From Alphaproteobacteria bacterium (lineage in GTDB: Bacteria; Pseudomonadota; Alphaproteobacteria; CAAHEQ01; UBA3637): a stretch of DNA of 40,711 nt. The stretch's first letter is position 1, and every line of letters starts with the position of its first letter. Positions 3,758 to 30,147 of the stretch are shown here, in pieces. A program made the translations under genes and the position numbers. The notes under the pieces were generated by a model. That model worked only from the letters and a program-made list of their open reading frames with translations. It had not been told where the DNA came from and made no database searches. The DNA is taken from positions 1-40,711 of the forward strand of contig JAGCKR010000027.1 of assembly GCA_017647405.1 (NCBI GenBank), read 5' to 3'.

Positions 3758-5152
3758 ATGGCAACATTTTTTTTCTGCGGAATTGGTGGTATTGGTATGA
3801 GTGCAATTGCACTTTATCTCCAAAAAAAAGGTCATCGGGTCTTAGGATCTGATCGTTCATTTGATGCAAATAATAATCTTGAAATGAAAGAACGCTTATT
3901 AAAAGCGGGGATTTCGCTTTTTGCACAAGATGGCTCTGGTATAACTGATCAGGTGAATTTTTTAATTGTTTCCTCAGCTGTTGAAGAAAGTATACCGGAT
4001 GTGAAAAAAGCATTAGAACTTTCGATTCCTGTCAAAAAAAGAGCGACTTTGTTAGCTGATATTTTTCATTCGTTTGAAAAAAAGATTGCTGTTGCAGGGA
4101 CCAGTGGAAAAACAAGTGTAACAGCTATGACGGCGCATATTTTATATCAGTTGGAAAAGCATCCGGTGATGATTAACGGTGGAATTATGCGTAATGTTTA
4201 TCATAATGAAGAGCCTTCAAATCTGATTTATGATACGGGAGATATTATTGTGATTGAATCGGATGAATCAGATGGATCGATTGAACTATATAATCCGTAT
4301 ATCAGTGTGTTAAATAATATTTCATTAGATCATAAACCATTGGCAGAGATTAAACCTCTTTTTGAACGTTTTTTAGAAAGAGCAGAGCTGGGTTGTGTTA
4401 TTAATCTGGATTGTGAGCATACAAAAACCATTTCTTTGCCGGATAAAAAGATTGTGTCTTTCTCGGTTGAAAAAGATAAACAGGCAACATTATATGCTTC
4501 TGATGTTTTTCAAACACCGCAAGGTATATCTTTCAAAATGGATGGTGAAGAGTATACTTTGCCTTTTATCGGTATTCACAACCTTTCAAATGCTTTGGCT
4601 GCTGTTTGTGCCTGTTTGTTGCTGGATATAAAACCAAAGGATGCTTTTGAAGCCTTGAAAACTTTTAAAGGAACGCACCGTCGTCTTGAAAAAGTGGGTG
4701 AAACGGGCGATGTAATCATTATCGATGATTATGCTCATAATGAAGAAAAAATTAAAGCAGCGTTATCTGCATTAAAAGTTTTATTAAAACAAGATACACA
4801 TTTGTTTGTTGTTTTTCAGCCTCATGGTTTTGCGCCACTTAAATTAATGAAAGATGGGTTAATTCAAATGTTGAAAAATGAATTATCCGATCAGGTTAGC
4901 TTTTTAATGTTGCCGGTTTATTATGCCGGTGGAACGGTTGATAAATCTATTTCTTCATTTGAGGTTATTGAGCCGTTATTTATGGCAGGAAAAAATGCTG
5001 TTTATTTTGAAACAAGAAGTTTGTTAAAAAAACATATTGTTGATCGGGTAAAATCCGGCGATGTTATTGCTGTTATGGGGGCAAGAGATGCATCTTTAAG
5101 CGATTTTGCCAGAAGCATTTTAGAAACATTAAAAGAAAAGGAGATTGCATGA
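3758..5152 (+). CDS. Mur ligase of the MurC/Mpl type
   Basis: A 464-residue ATP-dependent ligase that joins UDP-MurNAc to an amino acid or peptide. The N-terminal nucleotide-binding motif is CGIGGIGMSAIA (residues 7-18), the P-loop is GTSGKTS (114-120), the middle domain has ESDESDGS, and the C-terminal domain has FKGTHRRLE, IDDYAHN and FQPHGF. These match MurC and Mpl. The P-loop has Ser where most family members have His (GTHGKT). The start has AGAGGAAAA before it. It overlaps ldcA by the 4 bases ATGA. LdcA makes tripeptide from tetrapeptide and Mpl re-attaches tripeptide to UDP-MurNAc, so the pairing favours a recycling (Mpl-like) role over MurC; sequence alone does not settle this. Confidence 0.85.
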   Translation: MATFFFCGIGGIGMSAIALYLQKKGHRVLGSDRSFDANNNLEMKERLLKAGISLFAQDGSGITDQVNFLIVSSAVEESIPDVKKALELSIPVKKRATLLADIFHSFEKKIAVAGTSGKTSVTAMTAHILYQLEKHPVMINGGIMRNVYHNEEPSNLIYDTGDIIVIESDESDGSIELYNPYISVLNNISLDHKPLAEIKPLFERFLERAELGCVINLDCEHTKTISLPDKKIVSFSVEKDKQATLYASDVFQTPQGISFKMDGEEYTLPFIGIHNLSNALAAVCACLLLDIKPKDAFEALKTFKGTHRRLEKVGETGDVIIIDDYAHNEEKIKAALSALKVLLKQDTHLFVVFQPHGFAPLKLMKDGLIQMLKNELSDQVSFLMLPVYYAGGTVDKSISSFEVIEPLFMAGKNAVYFETRSLLKKHIVDRVKSGDVIAVMGARDASLSDFARSILETLKEKEIA

Positions 5153-6009
5153 AAGTTGTCACAATTGTTGCACCGGCTTCTCCGGTTTCTTTATCAGAAA
5201 AAAAAGTAATCGAATCATTTTTCAAAAAAGAGGGATTTGATGTTCGTTTTATGCCACATACTTTTGAACAAGAACGTTATTTGGCTGGAACAGATGAAAA
5301 TCGGGCAGCTGATTTAAATAAAGCGTTGACAGATTCGCAAACAGATATTGTGATCGCGTTGCGAGGAGGATATGGCTCTCCCAGAATTTTAGATATGTTG
5401 GATTATAAAGCAATCAAAAAAGCGAATAAAAAATTATTTGGATTTAGTGATATTACGGCACTTCAACTGGCTTTATATAAAAAAACAGGATTGGTATCTT
5501 ATTCGGGATTTAATGCTGATTGTGCTATTAAAGGCGTTGATCCTCTGTTAAAAGAAACTTTTTTTAAAGCTGTAAATGATGAAAGACTTGTTGTTGATAA
5601 TTTAAAACCTGTTGTAAAAGGGGTTGCTAAAGGAAAAGTTCTTGGGGGAACATTAACGATGCTTGTTTCTTTAATGGGAACACCATATATGCCTTCCTTA
5701 AATGGTGCATTACTCGTTGTTGAAGAGGTACATGAATCTCCTTATCGAATTGACAGAATGTTAAATCAGTTACGTTTAGGTGGGCATTTGAATCGGTTAG
5801 CGGGCGTTATTTTATCTGAATGTGCCGATTGTGTGGCTAAAGATAAACAAGATGGAACCGTTGAAGAAGTTTTTAACAGTTTTTTTAATCAATTAGGAAT
5901 TCCTGTTGTTAGCGAATTTCCGTATGGACATATTCCGAAAAGAATTGTTTTCCCAATTGGAAAAAAAGCAACTTTGAATGCAACAGAAGGTAAACTTATT
6001 TTTGAATAA
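5149..6009 (+). CDS. ldcA: LD-carboxypeptidase, family S66
   Basis: Removes the terminal D-Ala from murein tetrapeptides in the cytoplasm during peptidoglycan recycling. The 286 residues match family length. The nucleophile is probably S100 in GFSDIT, after the conserved GGYG motif; the Glu is in LLVVEEVHE (E192) and the His is H261 in PYGHIPKR, giving the Ser-His-Glu triad of S66 enzymes. It has no signal peptide. Its ATG overlaps the Mur ligase stop, and the U32 gene begins 14 bases after its own stop, so these three plus-strand genes look like one operon. Confidence 0.92.
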   Translation: MKVVTIVAPASPVSLSEKKVIESFFKKEGFDVRFMPHTFEQERYLAGTDENRAADLNKALTDSQTDIVIALRGGYGSPRILDMLDYKAIKKANKKLFGFSDITALQLALYKKTGLVSYSGFNADCAIKGVDPLLKETFFKAVNDERLVVDNLKPVVKGVAKGKVLGGTLTMLVSLMGTPYMPSLNGALLVVEEVHESPYRIDRMLNQLRLGGHLNRLAGVILSECADCVAKDKQDGTVEEVFNSFFNQLGIPVVSEFPYGHIPKRIVFPIGKKATLNATEGKLIFE

Positions 6010-6023
6010 TTAAAGGGTATAAA

Positions 6024-8285
6024 ATGAAAACAGAACTTTTGGCGCCGGCAGGTGATAAAGAAGCCGCATACAGTGCGTTTTATTTTGGTGCAGATGCTAT
6101 TTATTTGGGTTTAAAATCATTCTCTGCGCGTGCGGAAGCGGTTAATTTTGATGAGAAGGATTTGGATGAAATAACTGCTTTTGCACATACAAAAGGTAAA
6201 AAAGTTTATGTTGCCATCAATACCTTAATGCAAGAAAGAGAGTTGCCTGAATTATTAAAAATGCTGTCTATGTGTGAAAAATACCATGTTGATGCCATTA
6301 TTGTTCAAGATTTAGGAGTGGCTAGAATTGCTAAAAAATGTTTTCCAAGTTTGGTTTTGCATGCAAGTACTCAAATGGCGGTACATAATTTAGAAGGCGC
6401 TTTGGCTCTTAAAAAACAAGGGTTTGAAAGGGTTGTTTTAGCTAGAGAACTTTCTTTGAAAGAAATTATCGAAATTAAAGAAAAATCGGGTGTTGAAATT
6501 GAAGTTTTCATTCATGGGGCACTTTGTTATTCATATAGTGGACTTTGTTTATTTTCGTCGTTAACAACTTCAAGAAGTGCAAACAGAGGAAAATGTGTAT
6601 ATTCTTGTAGAGGTCTTTTTGAAAGAAATGGCCAAAAGAGTCATCTTTTTTCAATGAAAGATTTGGCTCTTGAAAAAGATGTTTTAAAATTAGAGGGGTT
6701 ATCTCTTAAAATTGAAGGAAGAAAAAAAACGCCTTTATATGTTGGGGCGGTAACAGATTATTATCGTCGTATTTTAGATACGGGAAAAACAGAGGTAACA
6801 TTAAGTGATAATTTAAAACAAATTTTTGCGCGACCATGGACAAAACTTCATTTTAATGGAAAAAATAAAGATGTTATTGATGAAGAGTTTGTTGGGCATC
6901 GGGGATTGTTTATTGGAGATGTTGAAATTGTATCTGGTGGTATTTTAACATTCAAAACATTATCTGCGATTGAAAGATATGATGGGATTCAAATTGATAT
7001 TGATGGTGTTGAAAGACCATTTGGTTTTTCTGCCGAAGAACTGTTTTTAAATAAAAAAAGAGTTTTTGAGGTTCAAAAAGGACAAAAAGTTTCAATTAAA
7101 TTACCTAATAATGCGCCTTTTATCAAAAAAGGATCAAAAGTTTATTCGGCCTCTTCCACAAAAGTAAAACGGGCATATAAATATCAAAAACCAAAGCCAA
7201 ACGAATATATGAATCAAATTGGAATCGAGGTTTTGGTTTGCGTTCTTCAAGATAAGATAACGGCAACATGTTTAGATCAAACCGTTTGTTTAGAAGGAGA
7301 GTTTTTAAAAGCAAAACAACCGGAAAAGGTTTATGAAAATGTTTTTTCGAGTTTTTCAAAAACAGGGGAATATTCTTTTTATTTAAAAGAATTATTTTTG
7401 GAAAATAAGGAAGGCCTTTTTGTACCGTCTTCTTTATTAAATGAATTGAGACGATTGCTTTATGCTTCGATTTCTTTTGAAGAAAGAAAAGTATCATTAC
7501 CTATTACTCAGAATTTTCAAAAAGAGAAAGTAAGTAAAAAGTGGAGTTTAAAAACCGATCAACTGTCTTTATTAAGCGGATTGGATTTATCTGAGTTTGA
7601 TCAAATTATTTTTAAAATAAATGAAAAATCCATTCCGGAAGAACTTGACTTTTTACCAAAAGAAAAGCTTGTTGTGGCATTGCCTGTTATTATGAGAAAT
7701 CAACTGTTTTGGAAGAAAAAAATTGATGCATTTTTTAATGCAGGGATAAAGCAATTTATGATTGGTAATATTTCCGGATTTTCACTTTTACCGCCATCAG
7801 CAAAGATTTATGTGGATCATACAATTGGTGTTTTAAATTTGCAGGCGCTTTCTTATCTTTTGGAGCAAAAGGCCAGAGGAGTAACTTTAAGTGTTGAAGA
7901 TACAAAGGAAAATATAGCCCATTTAATTGATAAATCTGATTCAGCAACTCTTGTTGTTTATCAGGATGTTGAGTTGTTTATTTCGGCAAATTGTGTTCGC
8001 AAAAACGATTGTTCTCTTTGTGACAGAAAATTTATAACAGATGAAATTACGTTAGGTAGAGATCAGTTTTTGCTTATCAGTGAAAATTGCGAAACAAAAG
8101 TTTTGAAAAAAACACCATTTTATATCGCGCCGGAAGCAAAGGATTTAAGTCCTGAATATTATCGGATTGATTTTTGTAATCGCAAATATTCTGTGTCAGA
8201 AGCAAGGAAGATAATAGAATCATCTTTTAAATTTCAACCGCTTAAAAATACGTTTACGGGTAATTTTAAAAAGAAATTTGCTTAA
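6024..8285 (+). CDS. U32 family protein, RlhA-like
   Basis: A 753-residue U32 'peptidase' protein. It opens with MKTELLAPAGDKEAAYSAF and carries the family features IYLGLKSFSARAEA, FIHGALCYSYSGLC and the Cys cluster RGKCVYSCRGLF. A long C-terminal half follows (about 400-753), ending with CVRKNDCSLCDRKF, a second Cys cluster. Several U32 proteins are now known to hydroxylate RNA (RlhA on 23S rRNA C2501, TrhP/TrhO on tRNA), and the long form with extra domains is most like RlhA. A true protease role is less likely. AAAGGG lies before the ATG, 14 bases after ldcA. Confidence 0.85.
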   Translation: MKTELLAPAGDKEAAYSAFYFGADAIYLGLKSFSARAEAVNFDEKDLDEITAFAHTKGKKVYVAINTLMQERELPELLKMLSMCEKYHVDAIIVQDLGVARIAKKCFPSLVLHASTQMAVHNLEGALALKKQGFERVVLARELSLKEIIEIKEKSGVEIEVFIHGALCYSYSGLCLFSSLTTSRSANRGKCVYSCRGLFERNGQKSHLFSMKDLALEKDVLKLEGLSLKIEGRKKTPLYVGAVTDYYRRILDTGKTEVTLSDNLKQIFARPWTKLHFNGKNKDVIDEEFVGHRGLFIGDVEIVSGGILTFKTLSAIERYDGIQIDIDGVERPFGFSAEELFLNKKRVFEVQKGQKVSIKLPNNAPFIKKGSKVYSASSTKVKRAYKYQKPKPNEYMNQIGIEVLVCVLQDKITATCLDQTVCLEGEFLKAKQPEKVYENVFSSFSKTGEYSFYLKELFLENKEGLFVPSSLLNELRRLLYASISFEERKVSLPITQNFQKEKVSKKWSLKTDQLSLLSGLDLSEFDQIIFKINEKSIPEELDFLPKEKLVVALPVIMRNQLFWKKKIDAFFNAGIKQFMIGNISGFSLLPPSAKIYVDHTIGVLNLQALSYLLEQKARGVTLSVEDTKENIAHLIDKSDSATLVVYQDVELFISANCVRKNDCSLCDRKFITDEITLGRDQFLLISENCETKVLKKTPFYIAPEAKDLSPEYYRIDFCNRKYSVSEARKIIESSFKFQPLKNTFTGNFKKKFA

Positions 8286-17411: not shown

Positions 17412-18206
17412 ATGGCCACAACAACAAAAACAAACAAAAAAACGGTTAAAAAAACAACAAAATCAGTGTCAAAACCTGTGAAAACAAAGAAAAAAGCAAC
17501 AGCAAAAGTTGTTGAAGCTGCTTCTATGATTGAAACGGAAATAACGCCGATTGAAGTGACTGAAAGTATTGCTCAAGAGCAACAAAAAAAGCCTTTTGTG
17601 AATAAAGAAATTGTTGAACAAGTTAAAAAAGATGTTAAAAAACAAATGAATATTCCAAATTTGTTGACGCTTTTCCGAATCTGGGCAATTCCTGGAATTG
17701 TTGTAACTTTTTTCTTTCCAACAGCGTTTTGGGCATGGTTAGGCGTTGTGTTGTTTGCGCTTGCAGGGATTAGTGACTATTTGGATGGTTATTTAGCTCG
17801 TCACTGGAATCAACTTTCCCGTTTTGGTCGGGTTTTAGATCCGATTGCTGATAAATTATTGGTTGGCGCTATGTTGCTTATGTTGGCATACACGGCTCGT
17901 TTAGGGGATTGGGGAATTATTCCGGCTGTTGTGATTTTATGTCGCGAAATTTTGGTTTCCGGTTTGCGCGAATTTTTGGCTGAAATTAAAGTTGGATGTC
18001 CGGTTACTCGTTTGGCTAAATGGAAAACGGCTTGTCAAATGGTTGCGTTACCCATGTTGATGGTTGCCGAACCGAATTTTAGTGGTATATATGCAAATGC
18101 ACTTTATACATTAGGACAAATTGCTTTATGGGGAGCTGCAATTTTAACGGTTATGACAGGATATGATTATTGGAAATCTGGTCGCAAATATATGGATGAA
18201 GAATAA
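17412..18206 (+). CDS. pgsA: CDP-diacylglycerol-glycerol-3-phosphate 3-phosphatidyltransferase with Lys/Thr-rich extension
   Basis: Makes phosphatidylglycerol phosphate in the inner membrane, the first step to phosphatidylglycerol and cardiolipin. The CDP-alcohol motif is complete: D122, D125, G126, A129, R130, G139, D143, D147. Several membrane helices follow. The usual PgsA start is MNIPNLLTLFR, which here is residue 79; in front is a 78-residue Lys/Thr/Ala-rich tail. AAGAGG before the ATG at 17412 supports the long form, while nothing ribosome-site-like precedes residue 79. It lies 41 bases after uvrC, a common pairing in bacteria, and ends at a terminator. Confidence 0.95.
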   Translation: MATTTKTNKKTVKKTTKSVSKPVKTKKKATAKVVEAASMIETEITPIEVTESIAQEQQKKPFVNKEIVEQVKKDVKKQMNIPNLLTLFRIWAIPGIVVTFFFPTAFWAWLGVVLFALAGISDYLDGYLARHWNQLSRFGRVLDPIADKLLVGAMLLMLAYTARLGDWGIIPAVVILCREILVSGLREFLAEIKVGCPVTRLAKWKTACQMVALPMLMVAEPNFSGIYANALYTLGQIALWGAAILTVMTGYDYWKSGRKYMDEE

Positions 18207-18300: not shown

Positions 18301-18331
18301 GTCGGAAATCTAACGGTCGTTATTTTTGCCG
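18301..18331 (+). repeat. left 31-bp inverted repeat of the promoter switch
   Basis: Every base is matched by the reverse complement of 18578-18608; homology ends exactly at both edges. Its core TAACG-GT-CGTTA (18311-18322) is itself a dyad around an asymmetric GT. Confidence 0.97.
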
Positions 18332-18523
18332 GCTTTTTGGTTAAAAAATAACGCCTTAAAACAGGTCCTTTTTTGCCGATTTTGGAGTAGTTTTTTTGTA
18401 ACAAAAAATATAAAATTTCATATTTTCATCAATTTTTATGCAAAATTTTGATAAAAATAATCGTTTAAAATCAATCATCTAAAAGAAAATATTAAAAAAC
18501 AAGCAATTTTTTTTGAAAAATTT

Positions 18524-18554
18524 TGGACACGAAAATTCAAACCCATGGTATAAT
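18524..18554 (+). promoter_or_regulatory. extended -10 promoter inside the invertible element
   Basis: TG-G-TATAAT, with consensus TATAAT at 18549-18554 and the extended -10 TG at 18546-18547. TGGACA (18524-18529) is 19 bases upstream, a long but possible spacing. Transcription should start near 18561, giving a leader of about 100 bases that includes the right repeat. Confidence 0.8.
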
Positions 18555-18560
18555 AAAAGT

Positions 18561-18599
18561 ATGGAAAGGAAAAAGTTCGGCAAAAATAACGACCGTTAG
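18561..18599 (+). CDS. possible 12-codon leader peptide
   Basis: ATG at 18561, the predicted transcription start, opens a frame MERKKFGKNNDR that stops within the right inverted repeat. It lies between the switch promoter and the autotransporter. There is no other support; it may be chance. Confidence 0.2.
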   Translation: MERKKFGKNNDR

Positions 18600-18608
18600 A
18601 TTTCCGAC
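18578..18608 (-). repeat. right 31-bp inverted repeat of the promoter switch
   Basis: Exact reverse complement of 18301-18331. It lies in the leader of the autotransporter message, 55 bases before the start codon. Confidence 0.97.
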
Positions 18609-18663: not shown

Positions 18664-19164
18664 ATGTCAAATTATTCAAAAACCACATTACGTGAATTAA
18701 AAAAACGTTATCTCAATATCCTCAAAAAATGCTTCCTTTTGAATTTGGTGGTATCTGTTTCTCTAACTTTTTCTTCTTTTTCTATGGCTGGAGAATCCAG
18801 ATTAGAAAATACTGGTGAAAAAGAATATAATCAAATTGTTACGTTTGAAAATTTAACTGCTGGAAACCAAGATGGTGGTGCAATTAAAAATAACACAACA
18901 GGAATTATCAAATTTAATGATTTAGCTATTTTTAAAAATAATTCCGCCTTTGAATCTGGGGGCGCTATTATGAATTATGGCCAAATTGAGTTTAATGGAG
19001 GTGTAAAATTTATTGGCAATATCTTAAATTCAGAAGAAGCCATGGGTGGCGCCATTAGAAATAAAGGAAATAAAGCCTCTCTTCAATTTAAAGGAACCAT
19101 TTTGAATATCAAGATTATTAAAGTTAATTTCTTTTGCTTTTCCAGTTATATTCATATTATTTGA
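18664..19164 (+). CDS. autotransporter, N-terminal piece (signal peptide and first Pmp-like repeats), cut short by an inversion
   Basis: The start at 18664 has GAGAGG 6 bases before it and begins an extended signal peptide of about 41 residues (MSNYSKTTLRELKKR, then a hydrophobic core ending SSFSMA), typical of autotransporters. Then come repeats with GGAI or a variant: DGGAIKNN, SGGAIMNYG, MGGAIRNKG. After residue 144 (KGT at 19090-19098) the frame enters DNA that codes on the other strand and stops at 19164, so the product is 166 residues with no barrel. If 19098-21088 is flipped, translation continues as TSIFTNNRSTDSGAI and on to the barrel. Confidence 0.85.
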   Translation: MSNYSKTTLRELKKRYLNILKKCFLLNLVVSVSLTFSSFSMAGESRLENTGEKEYNQIVTFENLTAGNQDGGAIKNNTTGIIKFNDLAIFKNNSAFESGGAIMNYGQIEFNGGVKFIGNILNSEEAMGGAIRNKGNKASLQFKGTILNIKIIKVNFFCFSSYIHII

Positions 19165-21093
19165 AACAACATTATTTGTGCCAGATATTTTATCCGATAT
19201 ATCTAAAGTTACGTTATTGAAAAAGAGATTCCCATTTCCAGTCAAGCTAGATAAAGAAATGTTTCCTTCGCCAATAATAGTTCCAGTATTAAGGATATTT
19301 TTATCAACTGTTATATTTTTAAGTGTTATATCAGCATTATTTGTTATTGCTGTATCTGCTGTTGTTTCTGAAATAATGATATTTTGAAGTGTGACGTGTC
19401 CTAACTGATTATCTATAACCTTTTGGGCTCCTAAAATACTTAAATCTTTAATTGTAAGATTTGTATCTTCTTTATTTAATATAAATAAATCATTTCCATT
19501 TGCATTAATTGAGCTGTTTTTTGCATTAATTGAAGTTCCAATAATTAATTTATTGCCACTAGATAATGGTTCAAAAGTTTTCATTTTATCAATGGAATAA
19601 GTTGCAATAGCCCCATTTTTTGCCATTTTTAACGTGCTATTACCATCATAAGAAATCAAATACTCAAGAGGAGTTATCTCATCTGATAATTTATTGGCTT
19701 CAAAAATTAAATTTTTTCCTAATGTTGTTACCTTGTAGGTGTATGGTGATGTTGCTATAAGTAAGTTTGTGCTTGTATTTTTAAATGTTGCATTGCCATT
19801 TAAAATACTTGTTGTATAACTTATCTTGGGTGAAAAGCTTCCATTTTGATCTAACACTAAATTATCCACATAAGTGTTCAATAAATTTGAATTTGATAGA
19901 TTAAAATCAATTTCTGAAAACTCATAATTTGAGCCATTTAATGTTAGTTTGTCGGCTTTTAATGAGATTGATCCATCAGATTCTTTCATAAAATCGATAT
20001 CAATTCCTAATTTTGCGCCATTTCCTTGTAAATTAGAAAATGAAATATTATCAATTTTTGAATTTTTTAAATCGATTATGTTGCTAGAATCAATTTCATA
20101 AACACCGGTATAGGTGTTTTGTCCTAATTTAATCAGGCTATCTTTAAATATAACTTTATTGATGCCATCTGTATTTGCAACATCAGTTTTGAGATTAAAT
20201 GTGGCCCGTTCAATAGTATCACTTGTCAAAAGTTTGTTTTTTGCATCATAGGTGCCATATAAAATATCCCCATTGGTATCAAAACTCACATTTCCATCAG
20301 CATCAAATAAAGGGATTTTTATATCTGAAACAAAGGCAAGTTCTTTTTGTTTTTCATCTGGTGTATAAGCACCCAATAAAAGCGCTGCTCCATCAAATAT
20401 TAAGTCGCTTGAAAATTCGAGTAATTGCTCAGTTGTATCTGTGGTTAAATACGAAAGTTGCGCACTTCCAGATACTGATACTTTAAGATTTTGTAAATTA
20501 TCTCCATGAACGCGTAGTTCTCCACCAGTGATGGTATTTATTTTTGCAAAATTAAGTTTATCAACAGAAGCAATTGTCAGGCCATTATTTTGGTTGAAAT
20601 AGGAGGTGTTGTCATAAGAATTAATTGTTTTATCGCCAATTATAAGAACGCCACTCCCTGTTTTATTGATTGTTCCTCTGGTTTGATAAATACCACTATC
20701 TAATATACCAATTTGATTTTTCCCAAATTCAAAATTAATAGTCTTTTCATTATGTATATCTTGTCCATTTTGCAATGTGTTATTACGAATGGATGAGTTA
20801 TCACTAAAAAGAAAAGAACCTTTAAAACTCATTGTTCCTGAGTTATAAAAGCCGCCCCCTAATGCATAAGATCTTGTTGCATGAAGTTTATTCCCAATAA
20901 CTATAGTGTTTGAATTTTCTTCAAATGTTACAGTTTCTCTATAATTACTAAGAGCTCCACCAGAACCATATTCAGCGCCGGCTATATTGTTTGCAAATAT
21001 ATTGATTGAGTTTTCAGCAAAAGTAATTGTTCCATCATTGCTTTCAATTGCGCCACTGTCTGTTGACCGATTGTTCGTAAATATAGATGTTCC
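19093..21093. other. inverted passenger segment of the autotransporter gene
   Basis: GGAAC (19093-19097) and GTTCC (21089-21093) form the edges of a 1991-base segment whose coding strand is the minus strand, while both flanks code on the plus strand. Reversing it joins the left frame (codon GGA at 19093) to the minus frame at 21088, and the minus frame at 19098 to the plus frame at 21089, in register at both joints, giving 3810 bases with no stop. The matched edge is only 5 bases (AA-GGAAC with one mismatch inside), unlike the long repeat of the promoter switch. Reversible switch, one-off inversion and assembly error are all possible. Confidence 0.8.
19098..21088 (-). CDS. autotransporter, middle passenger piece in reverse orientation
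   Basis: The minus strand is open from 21088 to beyond 19098 (stop near 19030). It begins TSIFTNNRSTDSGAIES and carries more Pmp-like elements (FANN, SGGALSNY, LGGGFYNSG) followed by a long beta-helix-like region rich in Asn, Ser, Leu and Ile (for example KTGSGVLIIGDK, ITGGELRVHG, TTDTTEQLLEFSSDLIFDGA). The first ATG in this frame is at 20832, but there is no ribosome site worth the name, no signal peptide and no barrel, so this is not a gene in its own right. It is the centre of the split autotransporter. The lack of stops over 1991 bases shows that the break is recent or kept reversible. Confidence 0.8.
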
Positions 21094-22473
21094 CTTTTGG
21101 ATATTAGCAATAAAAATGTTTTTGTTAACAAGATTAAATTTGGCGAAGATTCAACATTAAGAGTTGCATTAAACAGCTTAGAAGATTATGGAACTTTATC
21201 ATATGATGACATTGAAGGAGATGAAAATTCAAAACTTAATCTTAAATTCACAAATGGCATCAAAGAAAATGGCGCTGTTTATAAAATATTTAACTCCGAT
21301 AATGAATTGATTTTAATTGAAAATCCTCTATTAGATATCATTGATATGCAAGATGGTTCTTACTCTGTTTCAAAAAAAGCAGCGGCACTTTTAGAAGAAG
21401 ATTTAGGCTTATCAAACACAGAAGTTAATATTGTAATAGCTTTGCTCAATAAACCTGATGATACAACAAATAAAGATTTTGTTAATATTCAAGAAAACCT
21501 TCTAAATCTTTTGCAATCTGACGATAAGAGAGTCTTTTTAACGGCAAAAAAAGCCTTGAACGCATTAGAAGGCGTAGATAGATCGATATATCAATCACAA
21601 ATCACCAACTTATTCAACCAATTACATATCATCTCTTCCCAAATGGCTTCAAATAATATATCCTTTAAAGTTGGTCATTCAGGTGGCGACATGGACCCGC
21701 GCGCAAAAGTTTATATTAAAGGGATTTATGATCGCACCAAATCAAGCATGGGCGAGGGATTCCGCGCCAGAAGTAAAGGCGCCGTCCTTGGCGTTCAAAG
21801 TGAAGTGACCGACACTTTAACCTTGGGCGTTGGGTATGCAACCAGTCAAACAACGGCAAAAGAAGATTTGCGCCGAACAGAGGTTGATACGAACACAGGC
21901 TTTATCTCAGCGCACTATCAACCAAACGCTTGGTGGATAAGCGGTCTTGCAACGTTCTCAAGGGGCGAATACGAAGAGGAAAAACAAATCCTCTCAAGTG
22001 TGGGCAAAGCCAGTTATGACGTTGATTCTTGGGGCGCTCAAGTGATGACTGGCTATGACATCAAACTTGAAAAGGCTGTTATCACGCCGGAAGTGGGCTT
22101 AAGATATCTCTCTGTTAAACAAGAGGGTTATACCGATACTTTGGGGACAACGGTTAGCGGAACTCGGAGCGATTACTTGACGGCGATTGCCGGCATTAAA
22201 ACAGCTTGGGATTTGGGAAAAATCCGTCCAACAGTTGGCATTAACGTTGGGTATGATATCATCTCTGATGATGTTACCGTATTGAATACGCTTGCTAATG
22301 GGGCTAGCTATACCGTGAACAGCGAAGCATTGGATCGCTTGAGTGTGGGCATTTCAACTGGCATTGAAGCCAAAGTTAGCGATCGCACAAACATGAAGCT
22401 TGAATATAATGGGTCGTTCAGAAAGGAATATGTGGATCATTCAGGTATGATTAAACTTGAAATGCGGTTCTAA
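21089..22473 (+). CDS. autotransporter, C-terminal piece with beta-barrel
   Basis: The frame continues the passenger (LLDISNKNVFVNKIKFGEDSTL) and then codes an autotransporter barrel of about 260 residues: AKVYIKGIYDRTKSS, GAVLGVQSEVTDTLTLGVGYA, GFISAHYQPNAWWISGLATFS, VITPEVGLRYLSVKQEGY, and the closing strand SGMIKLEMRF with terminal Phe, the BAM signal. The barrel resembles that of the autotransporter at 26731. The first codon usable as a start is a TTG at 21097 with no ribosome site, so this piece is probably silent now. The barrel DNA has a higher GC share than the passenger (sample 60-base lines: 53% at 21721, 45% at 22021, 27% at 21181). Confidence 0.85.
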
Positions 22474-22945: not shown

Positions 22946-23022
22946 TGGCGCACCCGGCAGGATTCGAACTTACAACCTTCTGATCCGTAGTCAGATGCTC
23001 TATCCAATTGAGCTACGGGTGC
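22946..23022 (-). tRNA. tRNA-Arg (anticodon ACG)
   Basis: The minus strand has acceptor GCACCCG/CGGGTGC, discriminator G and encoded CCA, D-arm AGCTCAATTGGATAGAGC, anticodon stem TCTGA/TCAGA around CTACGGA and T loop TTCGAAT. The ACG anticodon is edited to ICG by TadA and reads CGU, CGC and CGA codons. Length 77. Confidence 0.96.
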
Positions 23023-26700: not shown

Positions 26701-26730
26701 ACGCTCCAGTCATCGTTGTTTGGAGGTATT

Positions 26731-29700
26731 ATGAAAAAAAATTTATCAACGTTTCTTTTGTCTTATTTTGTTTTTTTGTCAACATTATCGAATATGGTTA
26801 ATGCGGCAGAAGATCAAAAGGGGCTTTTTAAGCAAATTTCAGAAATTAATAAAAATGCAACTGATGGAAGTTCTTATACATATCAGGTAACTGGAAATGA
26901 GATTATTGCCGGTTCAAACCTTGATAATCTTTCATCTAAGTCATATTGGCCAGTTAAAAAGGCGGTTAATTGGACGGTTTCGGGGTCATCTTCTAATGAG
27001 GGTATTCAAGGAACTGTTGGTATTTATAATTCATCAGCAACGAATGTGAGTGGTAAGTTAACACTTAAAAACATCGGTTCTCTTAAAAGTGGTACAGATA
27101 TTAAAACCGCAACGGCTTCAGATGTTAATGGCGGTGTTAAAAATTTAACAGGTTATTTGACAAGTAACGGCAAAGGAGCCAGCGAAACACCGGCTGTTGT
27201 TGTTTATAATTCGAATTTAGATGTTGATAATGTTGTTTTTGCCGGTTCATCAAATGGAAATTTGAGTGATCAAAGTGAATTAGGTGGTGCAATTCACGTT
27301 CGTAAAGGTAACACAGTTCAAATAACTGATGCTAACGGTAATAAAAAAACGGTGACTGTTACGGGAACACCGGTTGCAAATATTAAAAATTCAAAATTTA
27401 TTGAAAATAAATCAAATGATAACGGTGCCGCAATTAATACGGACCATGTTCAATTAAATGTTAGCAACTCTCAATTTGTTAAAAATTCGGTAACGGGTCA
27501 CGGTGGCGCTCTTGATGTGGGTGGCACAACAACATTAACAAATAGCCGTTTTTATAACAATAAAGCTAATGAGCTTGGTGGTGCTATTTTTGTTCATGAT
27601 TATTCAACTCTGACAAGTCAAAATAACGTTTTCGAAGGAAACAGTGCTTCTAATCAAAATGGTGGTGCTGTTGAAAATACGGGAACTTTAAAAATTAATG
27701 GTGATACTTTCATTAAAAATAGTGCAAACGGAACAACAAGCTCCGGCGGTGCTGTTTCAAATGATTTTGTCACGTATTATGATTCGAATAATGTTGCAAC
27801 AAAATATAGAGGGACAGCTGAAATTAAAAACGCAACGTTTAAAAATAATACAGCAAAAAATACAGGTGGTGCTGTTTATAATGTTGGTACAATGACTTCT
27901 CAAGGTTCAACATATACGTCAAATACGGCGGCATCAGGTGGGGCTGTGTCAAATGATACACCGAAAGGACAAACTGTATCAAAGTTTACTTCAACAAATG
28001 ATACTTATAATAGCAATAAGGCTACTTCTGTTGGTGGTGCGGTTTATAACACAGCAAATGCAACATTTGATGGGGTTACATTCTCAAATAACTCAGCTAC
28101 TCAAGGTGGCGCTATTTATAACACAGGAACTGTAACATTAAATAATGCTTATAAAACAAAATTTTATAACAATACTTCATCTGGTGTTGGAAGTGCTATC
28201 TATAATACAGGTACTGTTACTATCAATAATGCAAGTGATACAATTGATTTAGATTATAACCCACATACAGGTGTTACTGCACCAACGCAAAAAGTACGGT
28301 TGTTTGCTGATGGTGAAGATATTTATAACAGTGGCATTATTAATGTGAATAACAGCGATTTGCAGTTGCACTATGATCGAGATTTAACAAAAGGATTTAT
28401 TAACGTTCATGACTCTTTGACGAAGAGAAAAGTCGGAACTATTAACGTTAAAAATAGCCGAATTGATATTGGTAAAACAATTTTATATGGTGATGCAATC
28501 AATTTATATGATGGATCAGAATTATTAACGCATGTTAATGCTGCTTCAGGTAATGAATTTGGTCGCATTCAGGCAAATAGTATTTATGTTTCTCCAAATG
28601 GTACGGATATCACAATTATAGTTGCTGCCGGAGAACATTTGAATGAAGGAGAATCTAAGGTTTTTAAAATTTTGGATGCTTCAAATGAGTTAAATGCTAC
28701 TTCACCTAATGGGTTTAAAAATATCACAGAAAATAAAATGTATGATATTAAATATTTAGGTGACGGTAAATATCAATTATCAAGACCGGGAAAAGAGCCG
28801 TCCGATCCGTCAGATCCATCAGATCCGTCAGATCCATCCGATCCGTCAGACCCATCAGATCCGTCAGATCCATCAGATCCGTCTGACCCATCCGATCCGT
28901 CAGATCCATCCGATCCGTCCGACCCATCCGACCCATCCGATCCGTCAGATCCATCTGATCCGTCAGATCCATCCGACCCATCCGACCCATCTGATCCATC
29001 TGATCCGTCAGATTCTGATCAAAAAGACGATGATAAGATTTGTCCAGAGGCTGGATGTATCCATAATGCTTGGGTTGAAGAAGGTAAAATGGTTGGAAAT
29101 GAAACAGCTATTCGCGTTCAAAATGTTTTAAATGAGATGGCTCAAAGATTGGGTTGTGATTCTAAAGAATATCAGGATGCTTTAGATGGTATTGCTCCGG
29201 ATGTTTCTCCTCTTATTCAAGCTCATTCAACGGAAATTACGCGTCGTTTAGCTGCTACTGTTTCAAAACACATGTCTGTTTCTATGGAAAGAACAGCCTA
29301 TAAACATCGTGGAAAACGATTCTATTACTTTCCTCGCAGACAAGCACATTTATGGGTTGAAGGATTATATGGTAAATCCGAATATGATGCCGATAAAGGT
29401 TTTGATATGGATAATAAAGGCATAGCTGTTGGTTTTGATGGTCATGTTTCCAGTAACACCAGAATGGGTATCGCTTATGCTTATACAATGAGTGATGGTG
29501 AATCAGTTGGCAGAGATACGGAAATTGATTCTCACACGATTATGCTTTATGGTGAATATAATCCAAATCGTTTTTATACAAATTGGTTAGCTTTATATAC
29601 GCGATCCAACTATGAAGAGGAAAAGAAAGTATTCTATGAACGTGTGAATGCAGAATATGATGTTGATGTGTTTGCAGCTCAGTTAATGGTTGGTAGAAAA

Positions 29701-30147
29701 ACAGGACCTTTTGTTTTTGGTGATTGGGCAACAGGTGTTATTTCTCCGGAAGCCGGTTTGAGATATACATACATCAATCAACATGACTATACCGATCAAG
29801 CTGGACAAAAAGTTGAAGGTGGTAATGGGCATGTATTGACAGGTATTTTAGGCGCTCAATATGTTGTTGGCTATTCTATCTCACCGTCAGTATCATGGTA
29901 TCCTGAATTTAGAGCTGCCATTACATATGACTTTATTACTCCTGACATGGAAAACTCTGTTACACTTGTGAATGGTTCACGTTATGATGTTGTGACGGAA
30001 AATCTTGAACGTTTTGGCATTGAAATTGGTGCCCGCGTTGGTTTGGATATTAACAGAAAAACAGAAGTTGCTGTTGAGTATGAAGGTATTTTCAAAGGCG
30101 ATTACACTAATCACACCGGTTTAGCCTCCTTAAAATATAAATTCTAA
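26731..30147 (+). CDS. intact Pmp-like autotransporter with Ser-Asp-Pro linker
   Basis: A 1138-residue type V secretion protein. The signal peptide is at residues 1-26 (ending VNA). The passenger has about ten repeats combining FxxN with GGA[ILV]: FVKNSVTGHGGALDV, FYNNKANELGGAIFV, FEGNSASNQNGGAVEN, FKNNTAKNTGGAVYNVG, FSNNSATQGGAIYNTG. These are the repeats of chlamydial polymorphic membrane proteins and form a beta-helix. A linker of 23 SDP units (28801-29007) precedes a short Cys pair (CPEAGC) and a barrel of about 290 residues ending SLKYKF. GGAGG precedes the ATG; an earlier in-frame start at 26716 would add five residues. The gene is a single unit with its own promoter and terminator. Confidence 0.94.
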   Translation: MKKNLSTFLLSYFVFLSTLSNMVNAAEDQKGLFKQISEINKNATDGSSYTYQVTGNEIIAGSNLDNLSSKSYWPVKKAVNWTVSGSSSNEGIQGTVGIYNSSATNVSGKLTLKNIGSLKSGTDIKTATASDVNGGVKNLTGYLTSNGKGASETPAVVVYNSNLDVDNVVFAGSSNGNLSDQSELGGAIHVRKGNTVQITDANGNKKTVTVTGTPVANIKNSKFIENKSNDNGAAINTDHVQLNVSNSQFVKNSVTGHGGALDVGGTTTLTNSRFYNNKANELGGAIFVHDYSTLTSQNNVFEGNSASNQNGGAVENTGTLKINGDTFIKNSANGTTSSGGAVSNDFVTYYDSNNVATKYRGTAEIKNATFKNNTAKNTGGAVYNVGTMTSQGSTYTSNTAASGGAVSNDTPKGQTVSKFTSTNDTYNSNKATSVGGAVYNTANATFDGVTFSNNSATQGGAIYNTGTVTLNNAYKTKFYNNTSSGVGSAIYNTGTVTINNASDTIDLDYNPHTGVTAPTQKVRLFADGEDIYNSGIINVNNSDLQLHYDRDLTKGFINVHDSLTKRKVGTINVKNSRIDIGKTILYGDAINLYDGSELLTHVNAASGNEFGRIQANSIYVSPNGTDITIIVAAGEHLNEGESKVFKILDASNELNATSPNGFKNITENKMYDIKYLGDGKYQLSRPGKEPSDPSDPSDPSDPSDPSDPSDPSDPSDPSDPSDPSDPSDPSDPSDPSDPSDPSDPSDPSDPSDPSDPSDPSDSDQKDDDKICPEAGCIHNAWVEEGKMVGNETAIRVQNVLNEMAQRLGCDSKEYQDALDGIAPDVSPLIQAHSTEITRRLAATVSKHMSVSMERTAYKHRGKRFYYFPRRQAHLWVEGLYGKSEYDADKGFDMDNKGIAVGFDGHVSSNTRMGIAYAYTMSDGESVGRDTEIDSHTIMLYGEYNPNRFYTNWLALYTRSNYEEEKKVFYERVNAEYDVDVFAAQLMVGRKTGPFVFGDWATGVISPEAGLRYTYINQHDYTDQAGQKVEGGNGHVLTGILGAQYVVGYSISPSVSWYPEFRAAITYDFITPDMENSVTLVNGSRYDVVTENLERFGIEIGARVGLDINRKTEVAVEYEGIFKGDYTNHTGLASLKYKF
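28801..29007 (+). repeat. 23-copy 9-bp tandem repeat coding Ser-Asp-Pro
   Basis: Twenty-three 9-base units of the form TCNGA[TC]CC[GA], each coding SDP, in tandem. The unit length is a multiple of three, so gain or loss of copies keeps the frame and only alters linker length between passenger and barrel. The unit variants are interspersed, suggesting duplication of blocks. Confidence 0.97.

What the first reader, a model, noticed from the sequence alone, without database searches (positions are those of the whole stretch)
18664..22473. Autotransporter gene body split by a reversible-looking 2.0-kb inversion
The signal peptide and first repeats (18664-19097, plus), the passenger (19098-21088, minus) and the barrel (21089-22473, plus) join into one 1269-residue frame when the middle is flipped at GGAAC/GTTCC. 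Both joints are in register and no stop is found in 3810 bases. Such an intact but inverted middle is expected for a recent or repeatedly reversed inversion, not for an old pseudogene. It would be a second, protein-level switch below the promoter switch.
Basis: partly seen in the sequence, partly recalled or inferred. Interest (0 to 1): 0.95.

Follow-up and report, generated by a model that had tools for sequence, protein, structure and literature searches.

The report
Surface-protein gene with inverted middle
In an uncultured, likely gut-dwelling bacterium, the middle 2 kb of one predicted surface-protein gene lies backwards and splits the gene; this is probably a recent one-off inversion that silences it, not a built-in switch, although the promoter in front of it does look like one.

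Summary
Left piece (18664-19095, +), middle (19096-21093, -) and right piece with the barrel (21094-22470, +) are each open, in matching phase, and meet at a 5-bp inverted repeat GGAAC/GTTCC. A natural relative (P0001, 95% identical over the middle) is collinear across both joints without a gap, though it does not match the first 70 residues. A 458-aa ORF product expected only in the inverted state is listed for 6 contigs, the longest longer than this one, so a misassembly of this contig alone is unlikely.

'In register with no stop' follows for any clean, recent inversion and says nothing of reversal. The repeat has no arms beyond 5 bp, is not the promoter switch's site, is not kept in related genes, and no second such split was seen among 95 listed matches in 43 genomes. 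Most likely a microhomology-driven inversion knocked out one phase-variable autotransporter. No reads were available, so reversal is not excluded.

The likely real switch is upstream: 38-nt inverted repeats around a promoter, a family found at many loci here and in one relative (G004), with Mpi-family serine recombinases in the genome.

The parts
18301..18338 (+). left arm of the 38-nt inverted repeat of the likely invertible promoter element; core AACGGTCGTT at 18312
18523..18554 (+). promoter-like sequence inside the element (TTGGACA, then TGGTATAAT with TATAAT at 18549-18554), pointing at the autotransporter gene as assembled
   Evidence: read by eye; the 29-nt stretch 18526-18554 is found at 0-1 mismatches in 14 of the 15 stretches fetched; not listed by the sigma-70 scan, whose spacing limit it exceeds
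18571..18608 (-). right arm of the promoter element, 92% complementary to the left arm
18664..19095 (+). N-terminal piece of the autotransporter gene: signal-peptide-like start (by eye) and first repeats, 144 codons
18664..19164 (+). truncated frame as it stands in the inverted state, 166 aa and stop
19093..19097 (+). left joint, GGAAC, 5-bp inverted repeat
19096..21093 (-). inverted middle: most of the passenger, 666 open codons on the minus strand
21089..21093 (-). right joint, GTTCC on the plus strand
21094..22473 (+). right piece: end of passenger, linker and beta-barrel, 459 codons and stop; the ORF called in the inverted state starts at TTG 21097 (458 aa)
21715..22410 (+). autotransporter beta-domain (PF03797, 126.5 bits for the right piece, cut-off 26)

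Best explanation
The gene encodes an autotransporter whose middle 2.0 kb is inverted, which cuts its reading frame after 166 codons, and this is likely a recent one-off inversion between two 5-bp inverted matches (GGAAC/GTTCC) that would silence the protein rather than a programmed switch. Shown: the three open pieces, their phases, the reciprocal joints, the uninverted order in a close relative, and the loss of a continuous frame. Inferred: that a replication or repair error used the 5-bp match, that the product is no longer exported to the surface, and that the lineage carrying it spread clonally. The normal control of this gene is predicted to be the element just upstream: a promoter between 38-nt inverted repeats, predicted to be flipped by an Mpi-type serine recombinase coded elsewhere in the genome. 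As assembled that promoter points at the gene, so the body inversion would silence a gene whose promoter is ON.
For: Relative P0001 collinear and ungapped over both joints; relatives L057 and L061 collinear over the right joint. No sequence is lost or gained at the joints against P0001. Zero stops bounds unconstrained change since the event at about 63 substitutions, 1.7% per site. A match of 5 or more at random breakpoint pairs in this gene has a frequency of 0.0089, so the short match probably took part. The joint region is not a repeat in the genome as far as scored: the 2.3-kb stretch has two partial relatives at 65-68% identity (40 of 111 candidates scored). The 458-aa product of the inverted state is listed for 6 contigs. 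No other gene with an antisense middle beside its barrel in the 95 matches listed for 33 of 43 genomes (in G000, G002 and G004 only 16 of 29-35 candidates each were scored), nor at the other 18 barrel places of G000 (4 of these 18 show only a barrel end at a contig end).
Against: The frame is intact, which a switch would also give. The genome has three Mpi-family serine recombinases whose full set of sites is unknown. The 5-bp match is also what a recombinase with a very short crossover would leave. The six contigs may come from one study, and cluster members of P0001 could include an uninverted copy of this very allele (identity over the aligned parts about 93%, reckoned, above the 90% clustering). 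The search for second cases was partial.
Confidence: 0.72

Rival explanations
1. A programmed, reversible intragenic inversion: a recombinase flips the middle at GGAAC/GTTCC and so turns the protein on and off, below the promoter switch.
For: Reciprocal joints and open frame; three Mpi-family serine recombinases in the genome; the same gene has a likely invertible promoter; a 5-bp match is more than random breakpoints usually give.
Against: No arms beyond 5 bp; promoter-site core absent from the gene body; the inverted pair is not kept in the relatives and paralogues placed at either joint, 0 of 8 left and 0 of 10 right (the left placements fall in repeats and are loose); no second case seen; no orientation mixture could be shown. 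The contig runs through both joints, whereas at least 8 of 15 promoter-arm matches in this assembly lie within 300 bases of a contig end, a weak sign that the body is not mixed.
Confidence: 0.1
2. An assembly artefact: two false joins in one contig.
For: The genome is a 68-contig draft with many similar barrels, several cut at contig ends.
Against: Both joints share the same 5 bp with nothing lost; the joints lie outside the barrel and no near copy was found in the genome (40 of 111 candidates scored); the inverted-state product is listed for 6 contigs, longest 48,455 bases against 40,711 here.
Confidence: 0.06
3. An older inversion kept because the pieces have a use of their own, for example the 458-aa barrel piece or the antisense reading frame.
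For: Long open frames remain on both strands.
Against: The barrel piece has no signal peptide by eye; no close relative of the 600-aa antisense frame with its joint-specific end was found (1 protein, 40% identical, among the 7995 candidates scored); zero stops fits a recent event equally well.
Confidence: 0.05

Closest known systems
Intragenic invertons / gene-altering programmed inversions (Chanin et al. 2024; Milman et al. 2023)
   Same: A stretch inside a gene lies inverted and the gene product changes (recalled).
   Different: Here the inverted repeat is 5 bp and no mixed orientation is shown. Both papers were not held; known from titles in the reference list of PMC11892184 and recall.
Mpi-controlled multiple promoter inversion of Bacteroides fragilis
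   Same: Many promoter elements with one inverted-repeat family and serine recombinases of family NF009949 in the genome; surface proteins below some of them.
   Different: Alphaproteobacterium, autotransporters; the enzyme-site link is untested. Known from a title in reference lists and recall.
ipuS element and autotransporter UpaE of E. coli CFT073
   Same: Invertible element upstream that governs an autotransporter (abstract of PMC6083910).
   Different: Tyrosine recombinases there; no inversion of the gene body in the abstract.
Spontaneous microhomology-mediated inversion mutation
   Same: Short inverted match at both ends, clean reciprocal inversion.
   Different: Nothing that I could measure; mechanism recalled, not taken from a paper read here.

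Membership tests
Intragenic inverton (programmed inversion inside a gene) | Segment inside a gene inverted against relatives | tested here: met
Intragenic inverton (programmed inversion inside a gene) | Flanking inverted repeats of about 10-40 nt | tested here: not met
   5 nt exact, arms 3/12 and 4/12 alike; range from a passage of PMC11892184
Intragenic inverton (programmed inversion inside a gene) | Both orientations in one population | not testable with these tools
   no reads held; one orientation on this contig, uninverted in a 95% relative
Intragenic inverton (programmed inversion inside a gene) | A recombinase that acts at the site | tested here: inconclusive
   Mpi-family, XerC- and XerD-like recombinases present; promoter-site core absent from the gene body
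Intragenic inverton (programmed inversion inside a gene) | Site or event recurs in related genes | tested here: not met
   inverted pair kept in 0 of 8 left and 0 of 10 right placements, 3 of the 10 right ones holding GGAAC the other way round; no second antisense middle among the 95 listed matches, a capped list
Autotransporter (type V secretion) | C-terminal beta-domain PF03797 | tested here: met
   126.5 bits, cut-off 26
Autotransporter (type V secretion) | N-terminal signal peptide | not tested
   hydrophobic stretch seen by eye at residues 23-42; no predictor run
Invertible promoter of Mpi type | Inverted repeats around a promoter | tested here: met
   38 nt, 92%, promoter-like sequence between them
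Invertible promoter of Mpi type | Mpi-family serine recombinase in the genome | tested here: met
   3 found, 2 of 3 over the NF009949 cut-off
Invertible promoter of Mpi type | Promoter found in both orientations | tested here: inconclusive
   towards the neighbouring autotransporter at 1 and away from it at 3 of the 4 G004 loci where I could name it; not shown for both orientations at one locus

The most novel reading that the evidence does not exclude
The gene has two stacked switches: an Mpi-type promoter flip and, below it, a reversible flip of the passenger itself at a bare 5-bp crossover, a gene-body inversion that finders of inverted repeats of 10 nt or more would miss.
Probability: 0.08. 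Interest if true: 0.8.

Novelty: new member of a known kind. Interest (0 to 1): 0.35.

Why it matters
It shows how a split surface-protein gene can look like a switch while carrying only the marks of a clean recent inversion, and it points to the likely true switch beside it: a repeated promoter element family in little-known Alphaproteobacteria. If the body inversion did prove reversible, flips at 5-bp repeats would escape inverton finders that need repeats of 10 nt or more, and more genes would need a second look.

Tried and rejected
Misassembly: rejected as unlikely (reciprocal joints, no near copy found, six contigs). A shared site with the promoter switch: the core AACGNNCGTT occurs in the window at 18312, 18588 and 23956 only, none in the gene body. 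A conserved site at the joints in relatives: not seen; three right-joint places (L057, L064, L060) hold GGAAC in the orientation that gives no inverted pair. Dyads around the right joint were looked at by eye and left as unproven. Tyrosine invertase: of the two strong Phage_integrase hits, the one on C8 matches the XerC model best (294.8 bits, below its cut-off 335.15) and the one on C35 the general tyrosine recombinase model NF001399 (335.5, over its cut-off) and then XerD (320.9, below 329.6); the other two hits, both on C59, were not typed. Other split autotransporters: the short barrel frames of G004 C71, C44, C39 and G002 C10 end at contig ends; G010:C12 has two overlapping same-strand frames and G034:C15 a short gene, not inversions; G000:C33 has a barrel end at its start and, tail to tail, a minus-strand gene with its own barrel. 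These screens are partial: only 16 of 29-35 candidates were scored in G000, G002 and G004, and a passenger far from P0001 would be missed. Named relatives of the passenger: none in genome contigs; with P0001, none in viral contigs. The inverted-state 600-aa frame in the protein database: only a 40% relative among 7995 scored candidates; the window's own frame was not listed either, so this absence weighs little. No predictor of signal peptides and no fold was run.

Full report
What the sequence shows. The window is contig C20 of a 1.61-Mb, 68-contig genome, 90% complete. The UvrC gene beside the locus finds uncultured Alphaproteobacteria as its best named relatives (62% identity; isolates from roe deer cecum and goat abomasum at 58% and 55%, which may leave out records nearest to the window's own genome), so the host is an uncultured alphaproteobacterium, likely of the gut. 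Between pgsA (17412-18206, name by recall) and a tRNA (22949-23022) lies one autotransporter gene in three pieces. Left 18664-19095 (+), middle 19096-21093 (-) and right 21094-22470 (+) have no stop, are whole numbers of codons, and together make 1269 codons. The right piece has PF03797 at 126.5 bits.

The joints. Left GGAAC (19093-19097) and right GTTCC (21089-21093) are an exact 5-bp inverted match and no more; the 12-nt arms outside and inside agree at 3 and 4 of 12 places. For random breakpoint pairs in this gene a match of 5 or more occurs with frequency 0.0089. The codon phases agree at both.

Relatives. The natural protein P0001 (1204 aa; 95% identical over the middle; 6 member sequences) matches the window as 18874-19098 (+), 21096-19093 (-), 21091-22470 (+), with residues 6-80, 78-745, 745-1204 and no gap (one search scored the 7995 candidates sharing most words and gave two proteins, P0001 and the 45% relative P0002). 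It does not match the first 70 residues of the window's frame and its residues 1-5 do not align, so it proves the order of the parts and not a working gene. The 2307-aa frame of G002 (L057) passes the right joint at residues 1903-1904 and has its own start matching the left piece (29% identity); the paralogue C46 (L061) passes the right joint at 917-919. So the window's arrangement is a real inversion, derived against relatives.

Is it in other assemblies? The frame that starts at TTG 21097 is expected as a gene only when the middle is inverted. Its 458-aa product (P0004, 100%) is listed with 1 member sequence and 6 contigs, the longest 48,455 bases. The tool does not say whether these are independent samples. 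The product of the 600-aa minus-strand frame was not found, not even for this window, so gene callers seem not to have called it.

Age. In the three pieces 4.75% of single changes would make a stop; with none seen, the 95% bound on unconstrained substitutions since the event is about 63, or 1.7% per site. Recent, then. The register adds nothing on reversal, because flipping back any clean inversion restores the frame.

Is it a switch? Against: no repeat arms, while invertons are described with repeats of 10-40 nt (passage of PMC11892184); the promoter-site core is absent from the gene body; related genes do not keep the inverted pair (GGAAC in 0 of 8 left-joint placements, GTTCC in 0 of 10 right-joint placements; 3 of these 10 hold GGAAC, the same orientation as the left joint; the left placements fall in repeats and are loose); among the 95 matches to P0001 listed for 33 of 43 family genomes, only this locus has an antisense middle beside a barrel (read from the list, in which 16 of 29-35 candidates were scored for G000, G002 and G004; C33 has two tail-to-tail parts). 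At the other 18 barrel places of G000 none has an antisense passenger beside it, 4 of them showing only a barrel end at a contig end. For: three serine recombinases of the Mpi family, two over the cut-off, and a gene that is already under a likely promoter switch. Weak sign against mixing: the contig passes both joints, while at least 8 of 15 promoter-arm matches in this genome lie within 300 bases of a contig end. I give the switch 0.1.

The promoter element. Arms 18301-18338 and 18571-18608 (38 nt, 92%) carry the core AACG-GT-CGTT; one copy (C58) has perfect 10-nt arms around the central GT, the style of a serine-recombinase crossover (recalled). The promoter-like 29-nt stretch between them is found at 0-1 mismatches in 14 of the 15 stretches fetched. 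At the four G004 loci where I could name the neighbouring gene as an autotransporter, the promoter points towards it at one (C16) and away from it at three (the end of C12, the start of C35, C73). The arm pattern, one mismatch allowed, has 15 matches in this genome and 29 in G004, none in the other 8 genomes of the genus that were searched. In the window the promoter points at the gene.

Mechanism. Most likely a replication or repair error joined the two 5-bp matches and inverted the middle once; the frame now stops at 19164 and the barrel piece has no export signal by eye, so the surface protein would be lost although its promoter is in the ON orientation. Loss of a surface protein could be favoured by phage or host pressure; that is conjecture.

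Literature. Chanin 2024 and Milman 2023 were not held. I saw search listings (one search found no paper), passages of PMC11892184, PMC11868660 and PMC13343947 and the abstract and outline of PMC6083910.

Noticed in passing
G004 loci L198-L208; window 18301-18608; L211 (G000:C52): A family of likely invertible promoter elements, 29 arm matches in G004 and 15 in G000, none in the other 8 genomes of the genus searched; the promoter points towards or away from the neighbouring autotransporter at different loci. It looks like a multi-locus surface switch in Alphaproteobacteria.
   Followed up: partly
L062 (G000:C43) end and L063 (G000:C48) start: Two different autotransporter genes whose contigs end at the same base inside near-identical promoter elements, perhaps one element between two genes or two copies that the assembler could not resolve.
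   Followed up: partly
P0001 residues 1-5; P0014 residues 1-4: Both database proteins depart from the window or from L106 just at their starts, inside the gene, as if the 5' part were rearranged or the contig cut there; the departing residues were not found in the loci searched.
   Followed up: partly
window 28780-28970: The second autotransporter (26716-30147) has a long Asp-Pro-Ser repeat before its barrel, a possible slippage site (place by eye).
   Followed up: no
L191 (G010:C12) 4280-6639; G004:C16:15081-16597: Two autotransporters split into overlapping frames on one strand, as by a frameshift.
   Followed up: no
G000:C58:26132-26820 (L095, L212): A promoter arm lies just upstream of a truncated barrel (151-aa frame, PF03797 positions 104-254), a likely remnant.
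   Followed up: no
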